The notes beneath the pieces were generated by a model. That model was given only the letters and a program-made list of their open reading frames with translations, was not told where the DNA came from and searched no databases. From assembly GCA_009733575.1 (NCBI GenBank), contig ML769679.1, forward strand, positions 1-64,000: a stretch of 64,000 nt of DNA. The letters are read 5' to 3'. The position numbers and the translations under genes were made by a program. This document shows positions 4,360-63,492 of the stretch, piece after piece (the stretch's first letter is position 1; each line of letters starts with the position of its first letter). The stretch is from Gymnopus androsaceus JB14. Its lineage: Eukaryota > Basidiomycota > Agaricomycetes > Agaricales > Omphalotaceae.

Positions 4360-5150
4360 AAATTTTTAAGATGCATTGAGTATTTTAGGGTGTATTAAAT
4401 GACTAATTTAAGTACCACCACTGTACTGGAATCAGTAGTGATTTTCATCATCAGATTGAATGGTACCATTTACTTTTACTCAAAAATATGTTCATCTCGA
4501 GTGAGCAGAGTCCTTTCAGCCATTTAAAATGACTGGAAATATCTCACAAGCATTGAATATTCTCAGGTGTAGGAAATGTCCCATGTAAGTACCACCATAC
4601 TAGAATCAGTAGTAATTTCTACCATCAGATTGAATGGTATCACTTACTCCTGCTCCCAAATACATTCATCTTGAGTGAGTAGAGGTGTTTCAACTCTCTG
4701 AAATGACTGAAAATTTGTCAGATGCATTGAATATTTTAGGATGTAGTAAATGACCCATGTAAGTACTGCCACTGTACTGGAATCAGTAGTGATTTTCATT
4801 GTCAGATTGAATGGTACTGTTTATTTTTACTCCAAAATATGTGCATGTTGAGTGAACAGAGTCCTTTCAACCATCTAACAGGACTGGAAATATTTCATAA
4901 GTATTGAATATTCTTGGGTGTAGGAAATGACCTGTCTAAGTACCGCCACCATACTGGTATCAATAGTGATTTCTATCATCAGATTGAATGGTATCACCTA
5001 CTCTTGCTCCTAAATACATTCATTCTGGGTGATTAGAAGCTTTTCAACTGTCTGAAATGACTTGGAAATGACTGGAATTTTTGGGTGCATTGAATCTTTT
5101 AAGATGTAGTAAATGACCCATGGAACCAGTAGCAATTTTCATTGTCAGAT
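4360..5150 (+). repeat. 177-bp satellite, about 4.5 copies, dimeric order
   Basis: A conserved CATTGA word recurs at about 4374, 4551, 4725, 4902 and 5088, giving spacings of 177, 174, 177 and 186 bases. Each unit also contains a CAGATTGAATGGTA block and a TAAGTACCGCCA-type block. Copies 1 and 3 resemble each other, as do copies 2 and 4, so the array looks like a repeated dimer of about 354 bp. It occupies the centre of the fold-back element. Confidence 0.75.
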
Positions 5151-39672: not shown

Positions 39673-40159
39673 ATGACCAAAGCTCCTCGGGCGCTCCCTA
39701 TTTGGGTTTTGCTACCTCTAGAACCTCTGGCACCATCTGCTTTCACCCAATTCTATCCGCTCCCATGCTATTTCCATCTGCTTTCACCCTATTCCATCCA
39801 CTCCCATGCTATTCCCATCCGCTTTCACCCCATCCCATCCACTCCCATGCTATTTCCGTCCGCTTTCACCCCATTCCATCCGCTCCCACGCTATTTCAGT
39901 CCGCTTCCACCTATTTCCATCCGCATTTTCTGTATTCCACCTGCATTATCCATATTTGGACTTATTACACCTTTTTGGACCACCCCTTCATCCATATTCC
40001 ATCTGCTTCCACTCACTTCTGGTTGTTGGACCACAATACCACCCGCTTCCTCTTGATTACATCATCAGGTGGCCCGTTAATATGCCGAATTTTTGGCAAG
40101 ACCTCAAGAACGCGATTCTTGACAAATTCGCTTCTAGAGATGGTATAAGAGAGCTATAG
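39673..40159 (+). pseudogene. Weak retroelement-like coding with a minisatellite in it
   Basis: 39745-39925 is a tandem repeat of about 40 bases (CCATCCGCTCCCATGCTATT). Downstream a frame reads MPNFWQDLKNAILDKFASRD, which resembles the conserved part of a retroelement Gag. The frame stops at 40159. It follows the TATA-bearing direct repeat at a plausible distance. This is a suggestion only. Confidence 0.3.
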
Positions 40160-46521: not shown

Positions 46522-49500
46522 ATGCCTGAAGAAACAATCATTGATTACAATAACCTCAGAACGAATTCTGCGGTAACATCTGTGAGTAATTGTTTAATTG
46601 CCCAGGCCACCTTATATATAAGTGACAGAGACGGGATGGCTATGGTGAAGAGATGTCCCCACATGCAACGATTTGGCAAGAATATACAAATGAAGCTGAC
46701 ACACATGACCAACAACTGCTCAAGCAGTGGAACCAGAACATTGACACTATGCTTATAGTGGTAAATATCCCCATTGTTGTGCAAGTGATATTTCTTTCTG
46801 ACTAATCTTGATTATCTGTTTACTAGGCAACTCTGTTTTCTGCAGTTGTAACTGCATTTGTCATTTTCACTGTCCAGAGTTTAGGACCAAGTGCACAAGA
46901 TGTGACCAATGCTCTTCTTCAGGATATTGTTCAAAGTCTCAGATATCCACAAGCAAACACAACACAGCCCAATCGGGAGATAGTATTTAATATCTCATCC
47001 ACAAATGTTTGGGTCAATGGACTATGGTTTATTTCATTGGCTTGCTCCTTGGGTGCAGCTGCAATAGGCATGCTGATAAAACAATGGCTGGCTGCATATG
47101 CTGCAGGTTTGCCTTCATCGCATCAGGTTCGAGCCCGTCTGAGACAGCGCCGATATGATGCTCTTATCAAATGGAAAACTCCTGAGATAATTGGGTTCCT
47201 GCCCTTTGCAATATCAATCTGTATAATATTGTTTCTACTAGGGTTATCAATATGGCTGTTCTCTTTAAATGAGACCATTGCTATAGCATCAACTATATGC
47301 ATAGGATGCATTGTTCTATTCCATATTGCTAGTTTTCTTCTTCCTGCAGTCTGCAATTGTCCTTGGAAAACAGCCATTTCAGCATTAATTTATCAGGGCT
47401 TATATCCACTCAGGAGAGTCATGACCAAATTCAATCTCCACTATTTGAGGGAAAGATTCAGAGCATTTGAGCTATTTATAGCCACTTCATTTCTGTTCAT
47501 CTGGAGCCATATTATAACTGTTTCGACAAAAAGAGCTGGATCATTTTTTTTACAGTGTTACCGTTCATTGAAAACATTATTTTTTCATGCCTGGTACTTT
47601 CTGGCATTTGTCGGAGAATGGTCTTTAAAGATTTTGCTATTAGTCATACTTGTTCCTTCCTGGTGCCTGATTTATCCTTTAGTCAAACCGATTGACTACA
47701 TCTATCAAAGGACACTGCAGCCCGTATGCAGCCTATGCTGTAAACATTACAATTATTATTCATCAAAATATATTCTAGTATATCCATCTTATCTGCCTAC
47801 TTTCGGCACTACAAAGAAACATGTAAGAAAGATTTGTGCTATGATTTCAAACCAAAAAACAAATAAACTCTCTCAATTAAATAACTTGCCATGGAGGCTA
47901 CCTTCAGAATATGATGTTGAAGTTCACTATGTTCAGGAGCAGCTAAAATCTCATTGGCTGGATGGTCAAGCTATCCTGTGGATGATCTGTACATCTACCA
48001 AGAAATCAATTATTGAACATAGTCTTCAATCATTAGCTGGACTTTCAGCAGATTTTGACAATGTCAATATCCTTCAAAATCTCCATCAACTGGTACAAAG
48101 TAATTTAATTGTATGTCTTATGGCAAAAAATCTGTCATCTGTGCATATTGAGCTTTATGCACGTGCCTTGTGGCAGATTCAATCAAATCTTTCTCTTAGG
48201 ACTGGACAACATGGTCGTGGCTCAGAGGAGGCAAATCATATACAGGCTTATGTTAAAATGACTGAAACATTGCTTCAGCAAGATCAGTCAGCTTTTGCAG
48301 CTTGCATCTGTGCTTGCAGCATGCTCAACGAGATCACAGATCTCCTCCAACTAATATGTGATGAAAATAGCCCGAGGTTGAATGGTTCACCCCCACTTCA
48401 TATAAGAATTATGGTAGAAACTTTAACTCAAGAAATTTCACGAAGGAAAAAAAGTGACTCCAGTACATGGACCGTTGCACGTTCCGACAATTCATTGGAA
48501 TCTCGGGTAGTACCACTCCTTGTGAAACTCCTTCGAGTGAAACAAGTTTCCATAGGTCGTTTAGGATATGATGGTCCGGAGCCATTTGACACATCTATCG
48601 CGGTTGCACTTGCAATCTTCACTCAAGCTATACCACATATTAATTTAGCTGAATATTCAGCTGAAGAGCAACGGAGAAAAGACATACAATATCTTATTTG
48701 TGCTTCACTTTCAATGATTTTGAGATTTCCGGAACATTTTAATTGTCAAGAGATCATTGATTTAGTATATGACAAGCTTGTTTTGGCAGGAATAGAACTG
48801 GTGGGCCAACCATACCGGGATGATAAACATTATCATGTCATTACTGCAGAGGTTTTCAAGGCTGCATTTGCTCCTCAGAAGCAACCTAATCATACCATTT
48901 TGATTGCACTGTCACAGATGGACTCACGAGTTTACTTACAGTTGCATCCAACAGCAATATCTGACTCAGGTAGATATTTCACAAATAGCTTTCCAATGGA
49001 GGTACAGATTGCTGTCAGTACTTGCCTTGAAAACTTGCATGTACCCCTGGCTCATCTTGGCTCCTTGCATGGCTTTGGACAAGATCAAGAGCTGATTGAT
49101 GTTGTCATCTCATCTAAATCAGAAATGAGCTCCAGAGTTCATGCATTTCAACTCCTGCTCAAAAGAGCTTATGAGTCACGAGATAACAACTCTCAGAGAA
49201 AAAAAATGAAATACCAGGGGTTTTTCGATGCCGTGAAAGTTTTTTTCTCCTCAATTGGTGCAATCAGCCAAGAAGACTTGCACCAGTGGTTGACTACTCT
49301 TTCTGTACTGTGTAAACATGAAGCAAATGACCTGGTTAAAAGTGGAGCAATTCAATCATTCATTGTATGGGCTTACCAAGATTGGAGAGGGCGCCGAATG
49401 ATGGAGGATCAAATGGAAGATCTCCATAAACTAGCAAAATTGGTTTCAGTAAATGTGGAGGAGATTAACAATACATCTTGGTTCAGTCCTGAGAGTCCAA

Positions 49501-49529
49501 CAAGACATCAGATACCAAGAGCAGTTTAG
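46522..49529 (+). CDS. DUF6535 domain membrane protein, 964 residues
   Basis: Three exons: 46522-46581, 46629-46760 and 46827-49529, with introns of 47 and 66 nt, all in phase 0. The N-terminus leads to WQEYTNEADTHDQQLLKQWN (about residues 36-55), the signature opening of DUF6535. Membrane segments follow at about 65-84 (TLFSAVVTAFVIFTVQSLG), 124-148, 186-210 and 217-240, then two more near 285-305 and 320-350. The remaining ~600 residues are soluble and helical, with no catalytic motif I can see. DUF6535 proteins are abundant in Agaricomycetes and of unknown function. The gene is uninterrupted and has a good TATA box, so it is probably active. Confidence 0.9.
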
Positions 49530-53627: not shown

Positions 53628-55770
53628 ATGGCCGATAAACCGATGATTCCAGTTGTAGAAGAGATAATAGAGGAGGCTGACCGGTGTGTATTCTGGCACA
53701 GGATGATAAATGAGTGACCGAGTTTTCATTTCTCATTTATTTATTTTTCTTGCCCCTAGAATACGTATCCTCGTTGTTGGCAAGGTGCTGGTCATCTATC
53801 TATTCAGAGAATTGTCTATTCATCTCGTGTGGATGTTGAAAACAGTCCGGTGTTGGCAAAACATCATTGATCAAAAAGATCTTCAACGTTGCAAACCTTG
53901 TCAGTAGTCCATGCCAATATAGTTCAATAGCTCATCAGCAAATGTATAGAACGTCTCTCATGATCGGGCTGGAGTATCTAACATTGAAGAGGAAATCAAA
54001 TCAAATCAAAATGATCGCTTTGTGGCGCACGATTCGGAGGGTTATGAGCCAGGGGAGGAGAGTAAATTTGAGGCGCTGCAGAGGTTTATAGAAAAACGTC
54101 GCAGTGAGGTAAAACTTGCGAATAAAGTCCACGTTATTTGGCAAGTATAGCAATACTTTAGTATTTTTCTTATCCTCAGATCCATGGTTAGGCTCTGCAT
54201 TGCAATTCCTCATGCGGGAGGCCGGGTTCTCGAAACAGGGACAGAGGTCTTGCTGAAAACTCTACCCAGAGGTATGTTGATGTTTGGTACCTATTGAGCC
54301 TTAGATGTCTGACTTTGGTTTTCGGTGATGACAGACATTGCCTTAATCGTTGTGTTCACAAAATATGACCGATTGGTTCTATCTAAAGAGGAGGGCATCT
54401 TAGAGGCTGATCCGGATCTAGAGAATGATGAAGAGAAGCTCATACAAAGATGTCAAGGACATGGGGAGAGTGATTTCAAGATATTGTGCATGGACACATT
54501 GGAAAGGTTTACATCCAAGTCAAACATTTCCATGCCTGTAGCCATTAAGGTTTCAAGTAAACCAAATTGGTTGTTAATGTTATTATCTAAACTGATGCCT
54601 TATTTAGGTGAATCTCAATATGAGGGTACACTATCGGAGCTACTCCGCATCACCGAAATGGAAATTTCACGTTTAAATCAACGTAATGAACAACCAATAG
54701 CTGCTGAAAATGTTGTTGAAGGAGTGGCAGAATCTCTCCTGGCCATGGCACAGATGGTTGATATTGACAAAAAAGTTGAATTAGTTATCAAGTGAGTGAA
54801 TATTCACCCAAACATAGATAATATTATGAGTGCTTACAAATCATTTAAGAGTGGGAAGAAAAAGTATTTTATTCAATTATTACACTCCAATGGGTAATTG
54901 ACTAGCATGATTAGAATACTGGCGTGGCCTAGCTTCAAGTCTTCATTTTCCAGGACTTGGTCTACAAGCATGTTTATTAGTCCTCCACAAAGACCTTGTC
55001 ATACCCTGGAATATCAATGATCCCCACCATGTAAGTTTAGTATTAGTAAGCTATCCCTTGTACTGAAATGGATTGCTTCTAGCTTCTTCTTTCTGGAGAT
55101 TTTGAGTCTGCTGTTACTCAATTGATAGAGTCTTTCCAAAAGTCATCTGATATATCTGATGCTAGAAAACATTTGTAAGTATCTCTGAGCTGCATTCCTC
55201 TTATGAGTTTTGGTATTGATATATTCTGTTAGCTCAAAGGGTATTGGGTTGGCTGGGACAGTGGCAGGGGTTGCTGGTGCTGTAGCAACTCCTGTAGCAC
55301 CAATTGTAGTACCAGCAGTATTTGTTGGTATGCTTTTTGCACACTGGGTACATGACATCTATACATCAACGTGAGTCAAACACACAACTCTTCTGAAGTT
55401 TGGATACTTTTCATATCTGATTTCTAGGCCCAAAACTGTGCGTTGTCTAATGCTATACATCCTGCATCTTTTCAACCTGATGCATGGCTTGTTTTCTCTC
55501 ACTCAACTTGGACAAAGCTTGCCAGGAGAAATCATCCAGTACCCTCAGGGGTATGAGGTTACTGGAGAAGATATTGAGCGCATTTTTGAGGGATACAAAA
55601 AATCTGAGGTTTTCAAGTGGATTTGCATTGCAGTCAATAATTTTGTTCAGCAGTCGGATATTTTGGCATATGGGAGCAAGGACCATGTGTTGGACAAGCT
55701 TGTTCAGCTGATGGACAAGGAACATAGATTTGTACCTGAAAGCAGCAAAGTTCCAGGTATGGTAACTTGA
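53628..55770 (+). CDS. P-loop GTPase with C-terminal membrane segments
   Basis: I derive twelve exons (53628-53683, 53760-53784, 53846-53899, 53950-54140, 54192-54271, 54335-54556, 54608-54791, 54850-54893, 54954-55030, 55083-55174, 55233-55370, 55428-55770), about 501 residues. G1 is IRILVVGKSGVGKTSL, G3 region FVAHDSEGYEPG, then IWLCIAIPHAGGRVLETG, and G4 VVFTKYD. This matches a large basidiomycete GTPase family. The C-terminal third has hydrophobic stretches (LAGTVAGVAGAVATPVAPIV, then VFVGMLFAHWVHDIY), so membrane anchoring is likely. The intron at 54141 uses a GC donor (TG|GCAAGT). The small exon at 54850 is uncertain. Function is unknown; roles in stress or membrane remodelling are guesses. 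Confidence 0.88.
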
Positions 55771-58692: not shown

Positions 58693-59867
58693 ATGTCTTC
58701 CGATAACGAAACAGCCATTCATCTTTCCTCTCCAGAGTCAGTAACTGAACCAATGGACTCTGATGAACTACTTAGACTTCGTAATATGTGTGGAAAATTT
58801 CGGATCCTGGTCATTGGCCGAGCTAATGCGGGAAAAACAACCATTTGTCAAATGATGTGCAATACCGAGGATCCACCTATAGTGCATGATAGAAATGGGA
58901 ACAAGGTGTGTCACTACCAAAAGATTTACTACTGTACCAATACAATAAATAACTTTACGATTGATCAAGATCGAGGTTCTTCCCAGTGCTGAGGTATGAC
59001 CGATATTTTATGGGAGATTAACATTTCCAAAGCATTTCACCAGCGTGGAATCCATGATATAAATAATGAAATCACTTATAAGGCCAATCCTGGATTTGTC
59101 TTTCATGACTCTGGTGGCTTTGAATCAGGATCAAGTGAAGAGATAAAAACTGTTCATGCATTCATCAAAGCCCGGTCTGAAGTAAATACTTTAAAAGAAC
59201 AACTACATGCCATCTGGTATGTTCTGCTCCGTGTCTGCTATACTCGTGATGGGTCCTAATGCTGGTCCACATTATCATACAAGGATATGCTTTCCTGTGG
59301 ATGAGGATCGCCCATTGTTGCCGACTGAAATGGATTTCTTTAAAGAAGGAACTCATTCAGGTAAGCAGATTGGTTTACAGACATCTGATTCCATAAAAAA
59401 ATACTATATAGTTCCTGTGATTGCGGTGTTTACAAAATGTGATGCACTGCGAACCAAGATAACAAAAGAACTTAGGGACAAAGGGATCACAAATCGCATG
59501 GAAATGAAAAAACTATTGCCAGATCATGTTAAAAAGTACTTGGATGGTCTGGTGGACCGAGTAAAAATTGAAGCTAGTTTTAAACCAAAGGGATTCGTCT
59601 TCATGGAAGGTGTGTAAATTATAAAACCAGGAGCTATTGTGGGGTAAATGATACTATACAGACATGCAAAAAGGGCTTGAAAGAGCACAACCACAGTGTG
59701 CAGCACTGATTGAAAAAACGTCAAATGCAATTGACAACATTGTTTTGCAGCTACTGCTTGTTACTGTGCAGCAATGCAACCTGAACCTCACAATTAAAAG
59801 TGCTATGAAATACTTTGTGTACATTGGTGGAGTAGAATGGTATTCAAGGACACTTAGGGGATGCTGA
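58693..59867 (+). CDS. P-loop GTPase related to the neighbouring gene
   Basis: Exons: 58693-58905, 58970-58993, 59044-59216, 59284-59360, 59412-59609 and 59662-59867, giving about 330 residues. G1 is FRILVIGRANAGKTTICQMM; an 8-residue exon gives IEVLPSAE; then GIHDINNEITYKANPGFVFH, DSGGFESG (G3), LHAIWICFPVDEDRP, VPVIAVFTKCDAL (G4). A family-typical helix follows, LQLLLVTVQQCNLNLTIKSA. The 51-nt stretch 59361-59411 is an intron by signal and family length, yet is open in frame. After the stop at 59867 further family-like words (RQFNRFVTQKIKEILIWFPH, 60000-60058) suggest the gene continues through more exons to about 60184, or that a frame break ended it early. It is close to the first GTPase in order and motifs, so an old tandem duplicate. 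Confidence 0.82.
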
Positions 59868-60199
59868 TCTTGTTAACAGAAGAGAAAAAGAATGGATTCA
59901 TCAGTGGAATGAAGAACTTGTTCCTTGGTGACTACGTATGTATATTGTGGAATGCAGCCATCATTTGAACACTCATAACTCTTTGTAGACTAAACCACGT
60001 CAATTCAACAGATTTGTAACCCAAAAAATAAAAGAAATTCTAATATGGTTTCCACATTTGTATGTGCGTAATCATTGTTTCTGAGGAGGGGGTTAGAGTT
60101 CTAACCTACCCATGGATTGCATAGTATGTGAGCTAGTGGATTTCATTTTAGGGGAGACAGTTTCTGATAAAGAGTGAATACTGATGCATTATTCAGACT

Positions 60200-62886
60200 G
60201 TAAGTCCTGCATCTTGGATACTCAATCCGCTGCTGATCAATCTTTAATTGCTGGGGAACATATTTGGAATGTGTTTTTCCAGAATGTAAGTTTGTCTTCC
60301 TAGATTTCTCAACTCCTCCACCTACTGACCTATGCTGGGTACCTGTGCATTGTCTAGAATGTATGTTCATTCATCTTCCTGGACTTGCCATCTCCTCCAT
60401 CTATTGACCTATGCTGGGTACCTGTACATTGTCTAGGATGTAAGTTCATTCATCTTCCTGGACTTTCCATGTCCTCCATCCATTGACCTGGGCTGGGTAC
60501 CTGTGCATTGTGTAGGATGTAAGTTCATTCATCTTCCTGGACTTTCCATCTCCTCCACCAGTTAACCTATGCTGGGTACCTGTGCATTGTCTAGGATGTA
60601 AGTCCATTCATCTTCATGGACTTGCCACCTCCTCCACCTACTGACCTATGCTGGGCACCTGTGCATTCTCTAGACTGTAAGTTCATTCATCTTCCAAGAC
60701 TTTCCACCTCCTCCACCTGTTGATCTATGTTGGATATCTGTGCATTGTCTAGCGTGTAAGCTCATTCATTGTCCTGGACTTGCCACATCTTGAACTTACT
60801 GACCTATGTTGGGTATCTGTGCATTTTCCAGCATGTAAGTTCATTCATCTTCATGGACTTTCCACCACCTCCACCTACTAAGCTATGCTGGGTACCTGTG
60901 TATTGTCTAGTATGTAGGTTCATTCATCCTCCTTGACTTTCCACATCCTCCACCTACTGACCTATGCTGGGTATCTGTGCATTGTCTAGCATGTAAGTTC
61001 ATCTTTATGGACTTGCCACCTCCTCCACCTACTAACCTCTGCTGGGTACATGTACATTCTCTAGGATGTAAGTTGATTCATCTTCCTGGACTTGCCATCT
61101 CCTTCACCTACTGACCTATGCTGGGTACCTATGCATTCTCTAGTTTGTATGTTCATTCATCTTCCTGGACTTTCCATCTCCAGCTATTGACCTATGCTGG
61201 GTACCTGTGCATTGTCTAGGATGTAAGTTCATTCATCTTCCTAGACTTGCCGCTACCTCCATCTATTAACCTATGCTGGGTACCTGTACATTGTCTAGTA
61301 TGTAAGTTCATTCATCCTCCTGGACTTGCCACTATCTCCACCTACTAACCTATGCTGGGTATCTGTGCATTGTCTAGGATGTAAGTTCATTCATTTTCCC
61401 AGACTTGCCACCTCCTCCACCTATTGACCTATGCTGGGTGTCTGTGCATTGTCTAGCTTGTAAGTTCATTTATCTTTTTGGACTTTGCTACCTTCTCCAC
61501 CTACTGACCTATGATGTGTATATGTGCATTCTATAGGCTGTAAGTTCATTCATCTCCCCAGACTTGCCACTTCCTCTACTCACTGACCTATGATATGTAT
61601 TTGTGCATTCTATAGGTTGTGAGTTCATTCATCTTCCTGGACTTGCCACCTCCTCCCCTTATTGACTTATACTGGGTACCTGTGCATTTTGCAGGATGTA
61701 AGTTCATTCATCTTCCAGGACTTTCCATTTCCTCCAACTACTGACCTATGCCAACTGCCTGTGGATTTTATAGAATGTAAGTTCATTCATCTTCTTGGAT
61801 TTGTCACCTCCTCCATTTAGTGACCTATGCTGGTATCTGTACATTCTCTAGGCTGTAAGTTCATTGATCTTCCTGGACTTTCCACCTCCTCCACCTATTA
61901 ACCTATGCTGGGTATTTGTGCATTCTTTAGAATGTAAGTTCATTCATCCTCCTTGACTTTCCACTTCCTCCACCTATTGACCTATGCTGGATATCTGTGC
62001 ATTTTCCAGTTTGTAAGTTCATTCATCTTCATGGACTTGCCCCCTCCTCTGCCTATTGACCTATGCTGGGTACCTGTGTATTGTCTAGCGTGTAAGTTCA
62101 TTCATCTTACTGGACCTGCCACCTTCTCCACCTACTGACCTATGCTGGCTAATATGCATTCTCTAGAATGTAAGTTCATTTAATTTTTCTGGACTTGCTA
62201 CCTCCTCCACCTACTGACCTATGCTGGGTACATGTGCATTCTCTAGTTTGTAAGTTCATTCATCTATCTGGACTTGTCACCTCCTCCACCTGCTGACTTA
62301 AACTGTACCTGTGTATTTTTTAGGATGTAAGTTCATTCATCTTCCTGGACTTGCCACCTCCTCCACCCATTGACCTATGCTGGGTTCCTGTGTATTCTCT
62401 AGTTTGTAAGTTTATTCATATATCTGGACCTGTCACCTCCTCCACCTACTGACCTATGCTGGGTACCTGTGCATTGTCTAGCGTGTAAGTTCATTCTTCT
62501 TCCTGGACCTTCCACCACCTCTGCCTATTGACCTGTACTGGGTACCTGTGCATTCTCTAGTATGTAAGTTCATTCATCTTCCTGGACTTGCCAGTTCTTG
62601 CACCTACTGACCTATCTTTCATGCCTGTGAATCCTCTAGTCTGTAAGTTCATTCATCTTCCTGGACTTGCCACCTCCTTCACCTACCAACCTTTCTTTGA
62701 TGCCCATGGATCCTCTAGACTGTAAGTTCAGTCATCTTCCTGGACTTGCCACCTCCTCCACCTACTAACCTATTTTTGATGCCTGTGGGTCCTCTAGGCT
62801 GTCAGTTCATTTTCCTGCACCCTCTACCTCCTCTATCTACTTACCCATGCTGTGTATCTGGGTTTCATCATTCAATGGTCCAGCAT
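60200..62886 (+). repeat. Tandem array of about 34 intron-like 79-bp units
   Basis: Unit starts (donor G) are at 60200, 60286, 60361, 60440, 60519, 60598, 60677, 60756, 60835, 60914, 60993, 61068 and so on to 62801, with a last donor at 62887. The usual period is 79. A unit reads GTAAGTTCATTCATCTTCCT, GGACTTGCCACCTCCTCC, ACCTACTGACCTATGCTGGG, TACCTGTGCATTGTCTAG, then three bases NNT, then the next GTAAGT. Each unit thus has a donor, a branch-site-like CTGAC/CTAAC and an acceptor. Donor variants are all usable forms (GTATGT, GTAGGT, GTGAGT, GTCAGT, GTAAGC). First and last units are 86 bp and diverged. It follows the second GTPase gene on the same strand and precedes coding-like exons near 63200. 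Confidence 0.95.
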
Positions 62887-63198
62887 GTCAGTCCTACATC
62901 ATTATCTTACTAGTCCTTGGCTGTAATACTTCTGGATACCTAAAACACCTCAGGCCAAACTTTTCACCAACTTACTCCAAACCAAACTGGTATGCATCCA
63001 ATCCCATACTACACCTACTTTTATTTACTCCTTCATTACTATTACAGGGAAATTCCTATACTCACGAAGTTTGCCTCACTTACTATGCAGGTTTGGGTCT
63101 TTCACTACAATTTCCATGTCTAGATTCTGGAAATGACATTCCTCACTCCCTGCTTCCTTCTTCCATGTTCAGCCTCACTTATTATTGCAGCTCATTCC

Positions 63199-63492
63199 TT
63201 CTGGAGCTGGAAATCCAATGACATGATCCCTCTTGAACAGATCATAAAGGAATCCACCCACAAGTACCTTTCCTCCACCAAGCCTGAATCTGTGGCAAAT
63301 GCTATAAGATTGGCTCAATTTGACACAATGTCTGAGAATGATGTGAATGAATGGATGCTCAATTTTGTTCTCAATAACCTTCTGGTAATTATTTTGTTCT
63401 TAAATTTCCCCATCTATAATCTGTATTCATTTGCAACTTTAGCCCACAAAATGATTGACAGCAACATTTCTTTACCCAAGATGTGGAGTTAG
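63199..63492 (+). CDS. 3' exon(s) of an unrecognised gene downstream of the array
   Basis: After a TTATTGCAG acceptor the frame reads HSFWSWKSNDMIPLEQI, then TKPESVANAIRLAQFDTMS and ENDVNEWMLNFVLNNLL. A GTAATT...TTTAG intron (63412-63469) may follow before a short end at 63492. Codon use and the helical, charged composition look like real protein. Several acceptor-like sites upstream (63050, 63093, 63178, 63198) could link it to the array. No family is recognised. Confidence 0.5.
   Translation, partial: FWSWKSNDMIPLEQIIKESTHKYLSSTKPESVANAIRLAQFDTMSENDVNEWMLNFVLNNLLVIILFLNFPIYNLYSFATLAHKMIDSNISLPKMWS

What the first reader, a model, noticed from the sequence alone, without database searches (positions are those of the whole stretch)
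60200..62886. Array of ~34 tandem intron-like units separated by hypervariable single NNT triplets
All 35 junctions I read keep the form AG-NNT-GT(A/G/C)(A/T/G)G(T/C). The triplets are, in order, ACT AAT AAT GAT GAT GAT ACT CGT CAT TAT CAT GAT TTT GAT TAT GAT CTT GCT GTT GAT AAT GCT AAT TTT CGT AAT TTT GAT TTT CGT TAT TCT ACT GCT CAT. The third base is always T (so in phase 0 no stop can arise), while the first two vary almost freely although the rest of the unit is well conserved. Copies differ elsewhere, but donor, branch-like CTRAC and acceptor survive. Possible readings: (1) a gene built of one-codon microexons giving a variable peptide; (2) one long intron with redundant, competing splice sites; (3) an intron amplified as a minisatellite by AG|GT-containing tandem duplication. 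I know of no described case matching this.
Basis: partly seen in the sequence, partly recalled or inferred. Interest (0 to 1): 0.9.

Follow-up and report, generated by a model that had tools for sequence, protein, structure and literature searches.

The report
One-codon exon arrays in mushroom GTPases
In the fungus Gymnopus androsaceus a gene for a GTP-binding protein carries 36 predicted exons of a single codon each, set between similar repeated introns; the codons differ far more than the introns do, so they would likely be spliced into a variable peptide, an arrangement that our literature searches did not find described.

Summary
The window is contig 297 of an 83.3-Mb assembly that matches Gymnopus androsaceus JB14. 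The array lies inside a G-domain (GTPase) gene: eight upstream exons, 36 one-codon exons and four downstream exons join in phase 0 into 463 codons without an inner stop; 47 of 47 introns are GT-AG. Thirteen further genes of the family carry such arrays, with four kinds of repeated intron (two of them related); one more, C17, has one-codon exons between introns that are not repeats of each other. Among unit pairs with identical introns 555 of 937 differ in the codon, against 1910 of 62792 for intron windows tested the same way. In one array 31 introns are letter-identical while codons differ. No stop occurs among 477 three-base exons. Best reading: one-codon exons encoding a variable linker, homogenised by tandem exchange, with diversifying selection on the codons. 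Against it: no RNA was available, deposited gene models stop at or skip the array, and 12 of 489 exons are not 3 nt. Splicing, inclusion and function are inferred.

The parts
58693..60063 (+). Upstream part of the host gene: eight predicted exons 58693-58905, 58970-58993, 59044-59216, 59284-59360, 59412-59609, 59662-59826, 59880-59935, 59989-60063 (G domain with P-loop GRANAGKTT; last exon ends ...WFPHLY in phase 0)
   Evidence: Pfam MMR_HSR1; deposited protein P0001 supports exons 2 and 3
60064..60124 (+). predicted intron before the first one-codon exon (GTGCGT...ATAG, 61 nt, not part of the repeat)
   Evidence: the deposited model P0002 of paralog C9 uses the equivalent intron (my reading of its letters)
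60125..62886 (+). array of 36 predicted one-codon exons: TAT ACT AAT AAT GAT GAT GAT ACT CGT CAT TAT CAT GAT TTT GAT TAT GAT CTT GCT GTT GAT AAT GCT AAT TTT CGT AAT TTT GAT TTT CGT TAT TCT ACT GCT CAT = YTNNDDDTRHYHDFDYDLAVDNANFRNFDFRYSTAH, separated by 35 introns of 69-83 nt
60295..62811 (+). repeated section of the array (unit 79 nt = 76-nt intron + 3-nt exon, 32 copies, 81% matches)
60128..60282 (+). first two array introns (69 and 83 nt, around exon 60197-60199) that differ from the repeat unit and are position-matched in paralogs C824, C171, C111
62887..62953 (+). predicted intron after the last one-codon exon (GTCAGT...TCAG, 67 nt)
62954..63454 (+). Downstream part of the host gene: four predicted exons 62954-62989 (AKLFTNLLQTKL), 63048-63090, 63173-63384, 63443-63454 (stop)
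   Evidence: first three conserved in C824, C171, C111, C440; the third also matched in C9

Best explanation
The array is likely a run of 36 one-codon exons that are predicted to be spliced in phase 0 into a 36-residue variable linker of a G-domain protein. The repeating unit is one intron plus one codon. Inferred mechanism: unequal exchange and conversion between units copy the intron, add or remove codons one at a time without breaking the frame, and keep introns alike, while selection for amino-acid difference keeps the two meaning-bearing codon bases diverse. The same arrangement was found in 14 genes of one family, with four kinds of repeated intron of which types 3 and 4 are related, so three lineages; and a 15th gene (C17) has one-codon exons between introns that are no longer, or never were, repeats. 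Because every exon is a whole codon, skipping any units would still give an open frame, so one gene could give many isoforms (inferred). Shown: position, phase, open frame, codon-versus-intron variation, recurrence in the family. Inferred: splicing, inclusion, translation, selection as the cause. Untested: function; the predicted fold of a relative is nearest to immunity-related GTPases, which makes a recognition role a lead only.
For: Open frame of 463 codons over 48 exons, 47 of 47 introns GT-AG; of the two other phases of the joined triplets one is full of stops and one is stop-free but hydrophobic, and the flanks fix phase 0. Flanking exons are conserved in paralogs. Same layout with four kinds of intron: type 1 (C297, C824, C171, C111, C9, C43/C440), type 2 (C72, C137, C331, C161), type 3 (C497, C514, C200), type 4 (C425); types 1, 2 and 3/4 show no similarity above shuffles. 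In six genes measured, the array starts 937-1121 bases after the start of the same G-domain exon match. C72: 31 introns letter-identical; 32 exons, 17 GAT, 10 TAT, 1 ACT, 1 CGT, 3 two-base. Identical-intron pairs: 555 of 937 differ in codon; control windows 1910 of 62792. No stop among 477 three-base exons; 35 NNA exons hold 0 TA/TG prefixes against 77 of 439 NNT, Fisher p 0.003, units not independent. Position-matched exons of three paralogs: NN differs at 6 of 18, introns at 34 of 630. Transitions: 591 of 916 intron differences, 39 of 171 and 37 of 135 at codon positions 1 and 2 (13 of 15 segments, modal-length units), so codon changes do not follow the intron spectrum. C17: 11 YAG-N3-GTRNG junctions, shuffles mean 0.14, maximum 3 in 3000; no tandem repeat of period 20 or more there; its 24-nt exon FDEKQFKL matches FAEKEFKL of Collybiopsis confluens P0132.
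Against: No RNA or peptide evidence was available. Deposited models of three type-1 genes end before or within the array (P0001-P0003), and P0132 of C. confluens runs from FPYW straight to FAEKEFKL, as if the array were one intron. The window protein aligns better to the relative P0033 without the array (score 538) than with it (506). 12 of 489 exons are not 3 nt; leaving out C43 and C440, 8 of 443 exons, 0.0060 per nt, not lower than intron length changes at 0.0030 per nt: exon length is not shown to be under frame constraint. Some may be assembly errors at sites where units differ, which I could not test. The identical-intron test rests on few arrays: 378 and 438 of the 937 pairs come from C72 and C425, eight of 15 segments give no pair, and single control windows reach 0.59 in C171 and 0.90 in C824. 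Stop avoidance is not significant in types 3 and 4 alone (p 0.12). The order of the C17 microexon residues does not match the continuous homolog P0123 better than shuffles (558 of 5000 as good in the anchored test; 4428 of 20000 unanchored). Donor positions +3 to +5 are only somewhat better kept than the rest (0.042 against 0.120 in the window, but 0.090 against 0.070 in C514).
Confidence: 0.66

Rival explanations
1. One long intron with redundant splice sites: the spliceosome joins the exon before the array to the exon after it, and the one-codon pieces rarely reach the mRNA; the array is a tolerated satellite inside an intron.
For: Skipping the whole array also gives an open frame (428 codons in the model) and a better alignment to P0033; the C. 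confluens model P0132 does this; very short exons are hard to define (recalled).
Against: A satellite in an intron gives no reason for the codon to differ in 59% of identical-intron pairs against 3% for control windows, for the third base to be T or A in 474 of 477, or for zero stops; C17 keeps 3-nt exons between unrelated introns.
Confidence: 0.2
2. Codon-directed hypermutation: a process that changes the two exon bases (and spares T and the intron) makes the diversity, with selection playing a lesser part.
For: C72: codons differ while 0 of 2263 intron bases do; transversion-rich changes at codon positions 1 and 2 against a transition-rich intron spectrum; in C72 three exons are two bases long while no intron changes length.
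Against: No enzyme or template was sought or found; diversifying selection on amino acids predicts the same two positions and the quiet third one; odd exon lengths may be assembly errors.
Confidence: 0.1
3. Neutral minisatellite: an intron duplicated in tandem with its AG|GT ends, with no coding role for the triplets.
For: Units are tandem and homogenised; intron gain by tandem duplication is described (PMC4974935, search listing only; the role of AGGT is recalled).
Against: Three unrelated intron lineages with the same layout in one gene family; uneven variation; C17; intact reading frame on both sides.
Confidence: 0.03
4. Assembly artefact: the repeat count and some triplets are wrong because long repeats were mis-assembled.
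For: C514:9201-13600 has a run of N where an array is expected; C43 and C440 are contig ends that share a stretch of units and have odd-length exons.
Against: Arrays on more than ten contigs and the non-repeated C17 array cannot all come from one error; letter-identical introns with differing codons are not what random errors give.
Confidence: 0.01

Closest known systems
Micro-exon genes (MEGs) of schistosomes
   Same: Many short symmetric exons whose skipping keeps the frame, giving protein variants (definition recalled; papers seen in a search listing only)
   Different: There the exons are longer and differ in sequence, and products are secreted (recalled); here each exon is a single codon, introns are tandem copies, and the host is a G-domain protein
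Podospora anserina hnwd non-self recognition genes (WD40 repeats)
   Same: Repeat units homogenised by concerted evolution while four codons per unit are under positive selection; unequal crossing over changes unit number (PMC2873952, passages read)
   Different: There the unit is a coding protein repeat; here the unit is non-coding except for one codon
Introner-like elements and intron gain by tandem duplication
   Same: Near-identical introns in many copies (PMC4457414, PMC4974935, search listing only)
   Different: ILEs multiply through many genes; every listed match of the type-1 and type-2 introns lies on a contig that carries one of these arrays (both lists were cut short of the 199 and 153 matches counted)
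Single 3-nt microexons (mouse Ncam, Drosophila TnT; passages of PMC8042270)
   Same: Exon of exactly one codon
   Different: Reported there as single exons of a gene, not dozens in a row with hypervariable codons
Immunity-related p47 GTPases (IRG: IIGP1/Irga6, IRGB10, Irgb6)

Membership tests
Spliceosomal introns / microexons | GT-AG ends on every intron and exons in frame with the flanks | tested here: met
   47 of 47 GT-AG, 463-codon frame; array junctions were found by requiring AG and GT, so this is informative for the frame and the flanks, less for the ends
Spliceosomal introns / microexons | inclusion in mature RNA | not testable with these tools
   no reads held; the protein search with residues 300-463 found nothing at E <= 1 among 143 candidates
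Schistosome-type micro-exon genes | short symmetric exons make up most of the coding sequence (recalled) | tested here: not met
   36 of 48 exons but 36 of 463 codons
Schistosome-type micro-exon genes | secreted product with signal peptide (recalled) | not tested
   N terminus MSSDNETAI precedes a P-loop G domain; no signal predictor run
hnwd / NLR repeat genes | WD40 or other protein repeats | tested here: not met
   Pfam finds only MMR_HSR1 and a G-alpha match below its cutoff
hnwd / NLR repeat genes | homogenised units with hypervariable codons | tested here: met
   as a way of working, not as membership
Introner-like elements | copies in many unrelated genes | tested here: not met
   every listed match is on a contig with an array; the lists do not show all 199 and 153 matches, and types 3 and 4 were not searched this way
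Immunity-related GTPases (IRG) | GX4GK(S/T) G domain | tested here: met
   GRANAGKTT in the window protein; MMR_HSR1 E 1.1e-4, 22.7 bits against cutoff 21.9
Immunity-related GTPases (IRG) | IRG fold of G domain plus helical domain | tested here: inconclusive
Immunity-related GTPases (IRG) | induced role in defence | not testable with these tools
   no expression data

The most novel reading that the evidence does not exclude
A fungal diversity-generating gene family: an immunity-GTPase-like protein whose recognition loop is written one codon per exon, so that intron homology drives exchange, insertion and loss of single residues, alternative splicing can deal out many peptides from one array, and a codon-directed process keeps the letters changing.
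Probability: 0.17. Interest if true: 0.97.

Novelty: categorically new. Interest (0 to 1): 0.92.

Why it matters
If the codons are spliced in, these are genes in which a protein segment is encoded one residue per exon, with 11 to 57 such exons detected per array segment. That would test the lower limit of exon size and of intron definition in fungi, and would be a new way to diversify a protein: recombination between introns edits a peptide by single residues without frame risk. The G-domain family is large (705 protein hits, the 120 listed mostly from mushrooms), the three deposited models seen of array genes lack these exons, and the question is directly testable with long-read cDNA.

Tried and rejected
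Neutral minisatellite and plain intron with redundant sites: weighed and put behind, see rivals. Phase 1 reading of the triplets (all hydrophobic, stop-free): rejected because the exon before (WFPHLY) and the exon after (AKLF) fix phase 0. An earlier gene model had a wrong exon 2/3 and exon 8; corrected with deposited proteins, and one donor moved by three bases to a GT. First thought that all four intron types were unrelated: one search shows that types 3 and 4 share a stretch of 32 bases with 28 identical (0 of 2000 shuffles as good). Shuffle tests of the C17 microexon peptide against P0123: not significant; kept as agreement in place only (score 80 without, 112 with the microexon residues). 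Frame constraint from exon length: not shown. Homologs of residues 300-463 with the array: none at E <= 1. Genome control with third base C: 0 hits, 8 for the reversed pattern; the same with third base G or A did not complete. Literature: ten searches found no array of one-codon exons; [quoted passage not shown] The library lacks most subscription papers and preprints.

Full report
WHAT IS THERE. Tandem Repeats Finder sees 32 copies of a 79-nt unit at 60295-62811, 81% matches. A unit is a 76-nt intron-like stretch, GTAAGT...TAG, and one triplet; a branch-like YTRAY is in 32 of 35 introns, the stricter CTRAY in 18. The window is contig 297 of an assembly of 83.3 Mb in 934 contigs. Protein records of Gymnopus androsaceus JB14 come from contigs of exactly 83712, 614884 and 196790 bases, the lengths of contigs 297, 9 and 111, so that is the organism.

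THE HOST GENE. Eight exons upstream (58693-60063), the 36 triplets, and four exons downstream (62954-63454) join into 463 codons with one terminal stop; all 47 introns begin with GT and end with AG (boundaries partly corrected with deposited proteins). The exon before the array ends ...WFPHLY and the exon after begins AKLFTNLLQTKL, both in phase 0 and conserved in paralogs. In phase 0 the triplets read YTNNDDDTRHYHDFDYDLAVDNANFRNFDFRYSTAH. Leaving all 36 out also keeps the frame. The protein has a G domain with P-loop GRANAGKTT (MMR_HSR1) and 705 relatives at E <= 0.001, the 120 listed ones mostly from mushrooms. A relative, P0033 from Flagelloscypha, was folded with 49 others as alignment (mean pLDDT 83.5): the place of the array falls in a low-confidence stretch (residues 291-300, mean 51) between the helix that ends before WFPH and the next, hydrophobic helix (alignment). 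Its best fold matches are immunity-related GTPases, at TM 0.44, so this is a lead.

A FAMILY OF ARRAYS. An exon of the G domain has 34 matches in the genome. Fifteen of these genes carry an array: six share the window's intron (C297, C824, C171, C111, C9, and C43 continued on C440), four share another, 73-nt intron (C72, C137, C331, C161), three share a 67-nt intron (C497, C514:30094, C200:37675), one has a 61-nt intron (C425:30893), and C17 has one-codon exons between introns that are not repeats of each other. The 67- and 61-nt introns share 28 of 32 bases in one stretch; no other pair of types is more alike than shuffles, so there are three lineages. In six genes measured the array starts 937 to 1121 bases after the start of the G-domain exon match. 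The exon before the array ends in WFPHLY (type 1), MPFWRW plus a 6-nt exon (type 2), WFPQFV (type 4) and LFPYW (C17) by my reading; the type-3 exon I could not place in this way. One more gene (C514:9248) has a run of N there. Twelve matches were examined over 1.9 kb or more downstream and show no cluster of junctions, and six were not scanned. In C17, 11 junctions YAG-N3-GTRNG lie within 1040 bases; dinucleotide shuffles give a mean of 0.14 and at most 3 in 3000, and spacers of other lengths from 1 to 15 give 0 to 2. Tandem Repeats Finder reports no repeat of period 20 or more there. The exons read GAT CAT TATCTT AAT GTG CAA CAT CAA TGG AAT TGG AAT, then a 24-nt exon FDEKQFKL, then GCC ATA (my reading).

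CODONS VARY, INTRONS LESS. In 15 array segments (14 genes, C17 not included) 489 exons were found, 477 of them three bases long; third base T in 439, A in 35, C in 2, G in 1, and no stop codon. The detection required AG and GT and limited mismatches, so strongly diverged units are missed. In 13 of 15 segments no intron column is as diverse as codon position 1 (exceptions C440, n = 5, and C43, both contig ends); for position 2 this holds in 10 of 15. Among pairs of units with identical introns 555 of 937 have different codons; for every three-base window of the intron, tested in the same way, 1910 of 62792 differ. Pairs share units, most come from C72 and C425, and eight segments give none, so no p value is given; by segment the codon against the pooled windows is C72 197/378 against 0/26838, C425 280/438 against 1242/27084, C497 40/61 against 144/4109, C137 24/42 against 228/3210, C171 13/16 against 204/1324, C824 0/1 against 37/107, C200 1/1 against 12/77. 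In C72 all 31 introns are letter-identical, 2263 bases, while the exons are GAT, TAT, ACT, CGT and three two-base ones. Three paralogs compared exon by exon at the array's edge, where the introns are not the repeat, differ at 6 of 18 codon bases (positions 1 and 2) and 34 of 630 intron bases; with the window's gene added 19 of 36 and 154 of 1258. Differences within introns are 65% transitions (591 of 916); at codon positions 1 and 2 they are 23% and 27% (39 of 171, 37 of 135), and at position 3 only 1 of 22 (13 of 15 segments). A third-base change of T to C would be silent and is nearly absent; this fits selection on the amino acid against a background of homogenisation, and fits less well with mutation that hits the whole exon.

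RESULTS THAT CUT THE OTHER WAY. There is no RNA. The deposited models of three of the genes end before or in the array. Collybiopsis confluens P0132 joins FPYW to FAEKEFKL, as a gene finder would if it took the array as one intron. The window protein aligns better to P0033 without the array, 538 against 506. Twelve of 489 exons have 2 or 4 bases; per base that is no rarer than length change in introns, so a constraint on exon length is not shown. The lack of stops in A-ending exons is significant over all segments (p 0.003) but not in types 3 and 4 alone (p 0.12), and units are not independent. The C17 residues fall in the same place as the continuous linker of P0123, with W-x-W in common, but 558 of 5000 shuffles align as well. 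Donor positions +3 to +5 are not kept better than the rest in every array.

OTHER SPECIES. P0123 has 372 codons open on a 1435-base contig although the Gymnopus genes have several introns in that stretch, so it is probably from RNA (inferred); it carries NNFFHMERHYEVHWDWIEGW where C17 has its microexons. Arrays may therefore exist in Rhodocollybia and Collybiopsis.

MECHANISM. The smallest set of steps that fits: an intron flanked by one codon is duplicated in tandem; because the unit carries one whole codon, gain and loss of units never shift the frame; exchange among units keeps introns alike within a gene and, in part, among paralogs; selection for differing residues keeps positions 1 and 2 of the codons apart. 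The same logic is described for the hnwd genes of Podospora, where WD40 units are homogenised but four codons per unit are under positive selection (PMC2873952, passages read). What is different is that here the repeated part is an intron. Whether the spliceosome joins all codons, a choice, or none is the open question. The strongest argument that codons reach the protein is that they differ so much more than the introns around them.

NOVELTY. Single 3-nt exons are known (passages of PMC8042270), and genes rich in short symmetric exons are known in schistosomes (search listing). I found no report of dozens of one-codon exons in a row, or of hypervariable codons between identical introns, in ten searches of the held library, which lacks most subscription papers.

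Noticed in passing
G000:C17:275301-276700 (L039): The P-loop exon of the C17 copy seems to carry an insertion of roughly 600 bases bounded by inverted repeats (by eye), so this copy may no longer be functional.
   Followed up: no
L012 (C111:174501-184500), about 4407-4908: A roughly 500-base insertion with inverted ends sits inside the C111 array, a possible mobile element.
   Followed up: no
L022 (C514:9201-13600), about 952-2990: A run of about 2 kb of N begins where the sister gene L023 has its array, probably an array that the assembly did not resolve, or a withheld stretch.
   Followed up: partly
C497, C514, C200, C161, C331, C72, C9: G-domain genes often lie in divergent pairs about 1 kb apart; in the two pairs of which I scanned both partners (C497, C200) only one partner has an array.
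   Followed up: partly
C137:157891-158705 (-): A second, inverted fragment of the type-2 intron unit lies about 1.7 kb beyond the C137 array.
   Followed up: no
C82:189013-189092: A lone pair of AG-NNT-GTAAGT junctions with another intron sequence, TCT and ATT; chance or a small array.
   Followed up: no
window 53965-55770: A second, more distant G-domain gene (34% identity in the exon) upstream of the finding, without a junction cluster.
   Followed up: partly
window 4360-5069 and 39733-39924: Other tandem repeats: 177-nt period with 4 copies, and 41-nt period with 4.7 copies inside a strand-skewed stretch.
   Followed up: no
window 46902-49529 (+): An 875-aa open frame, the longest of those listed; not examined.
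   Followed up: no
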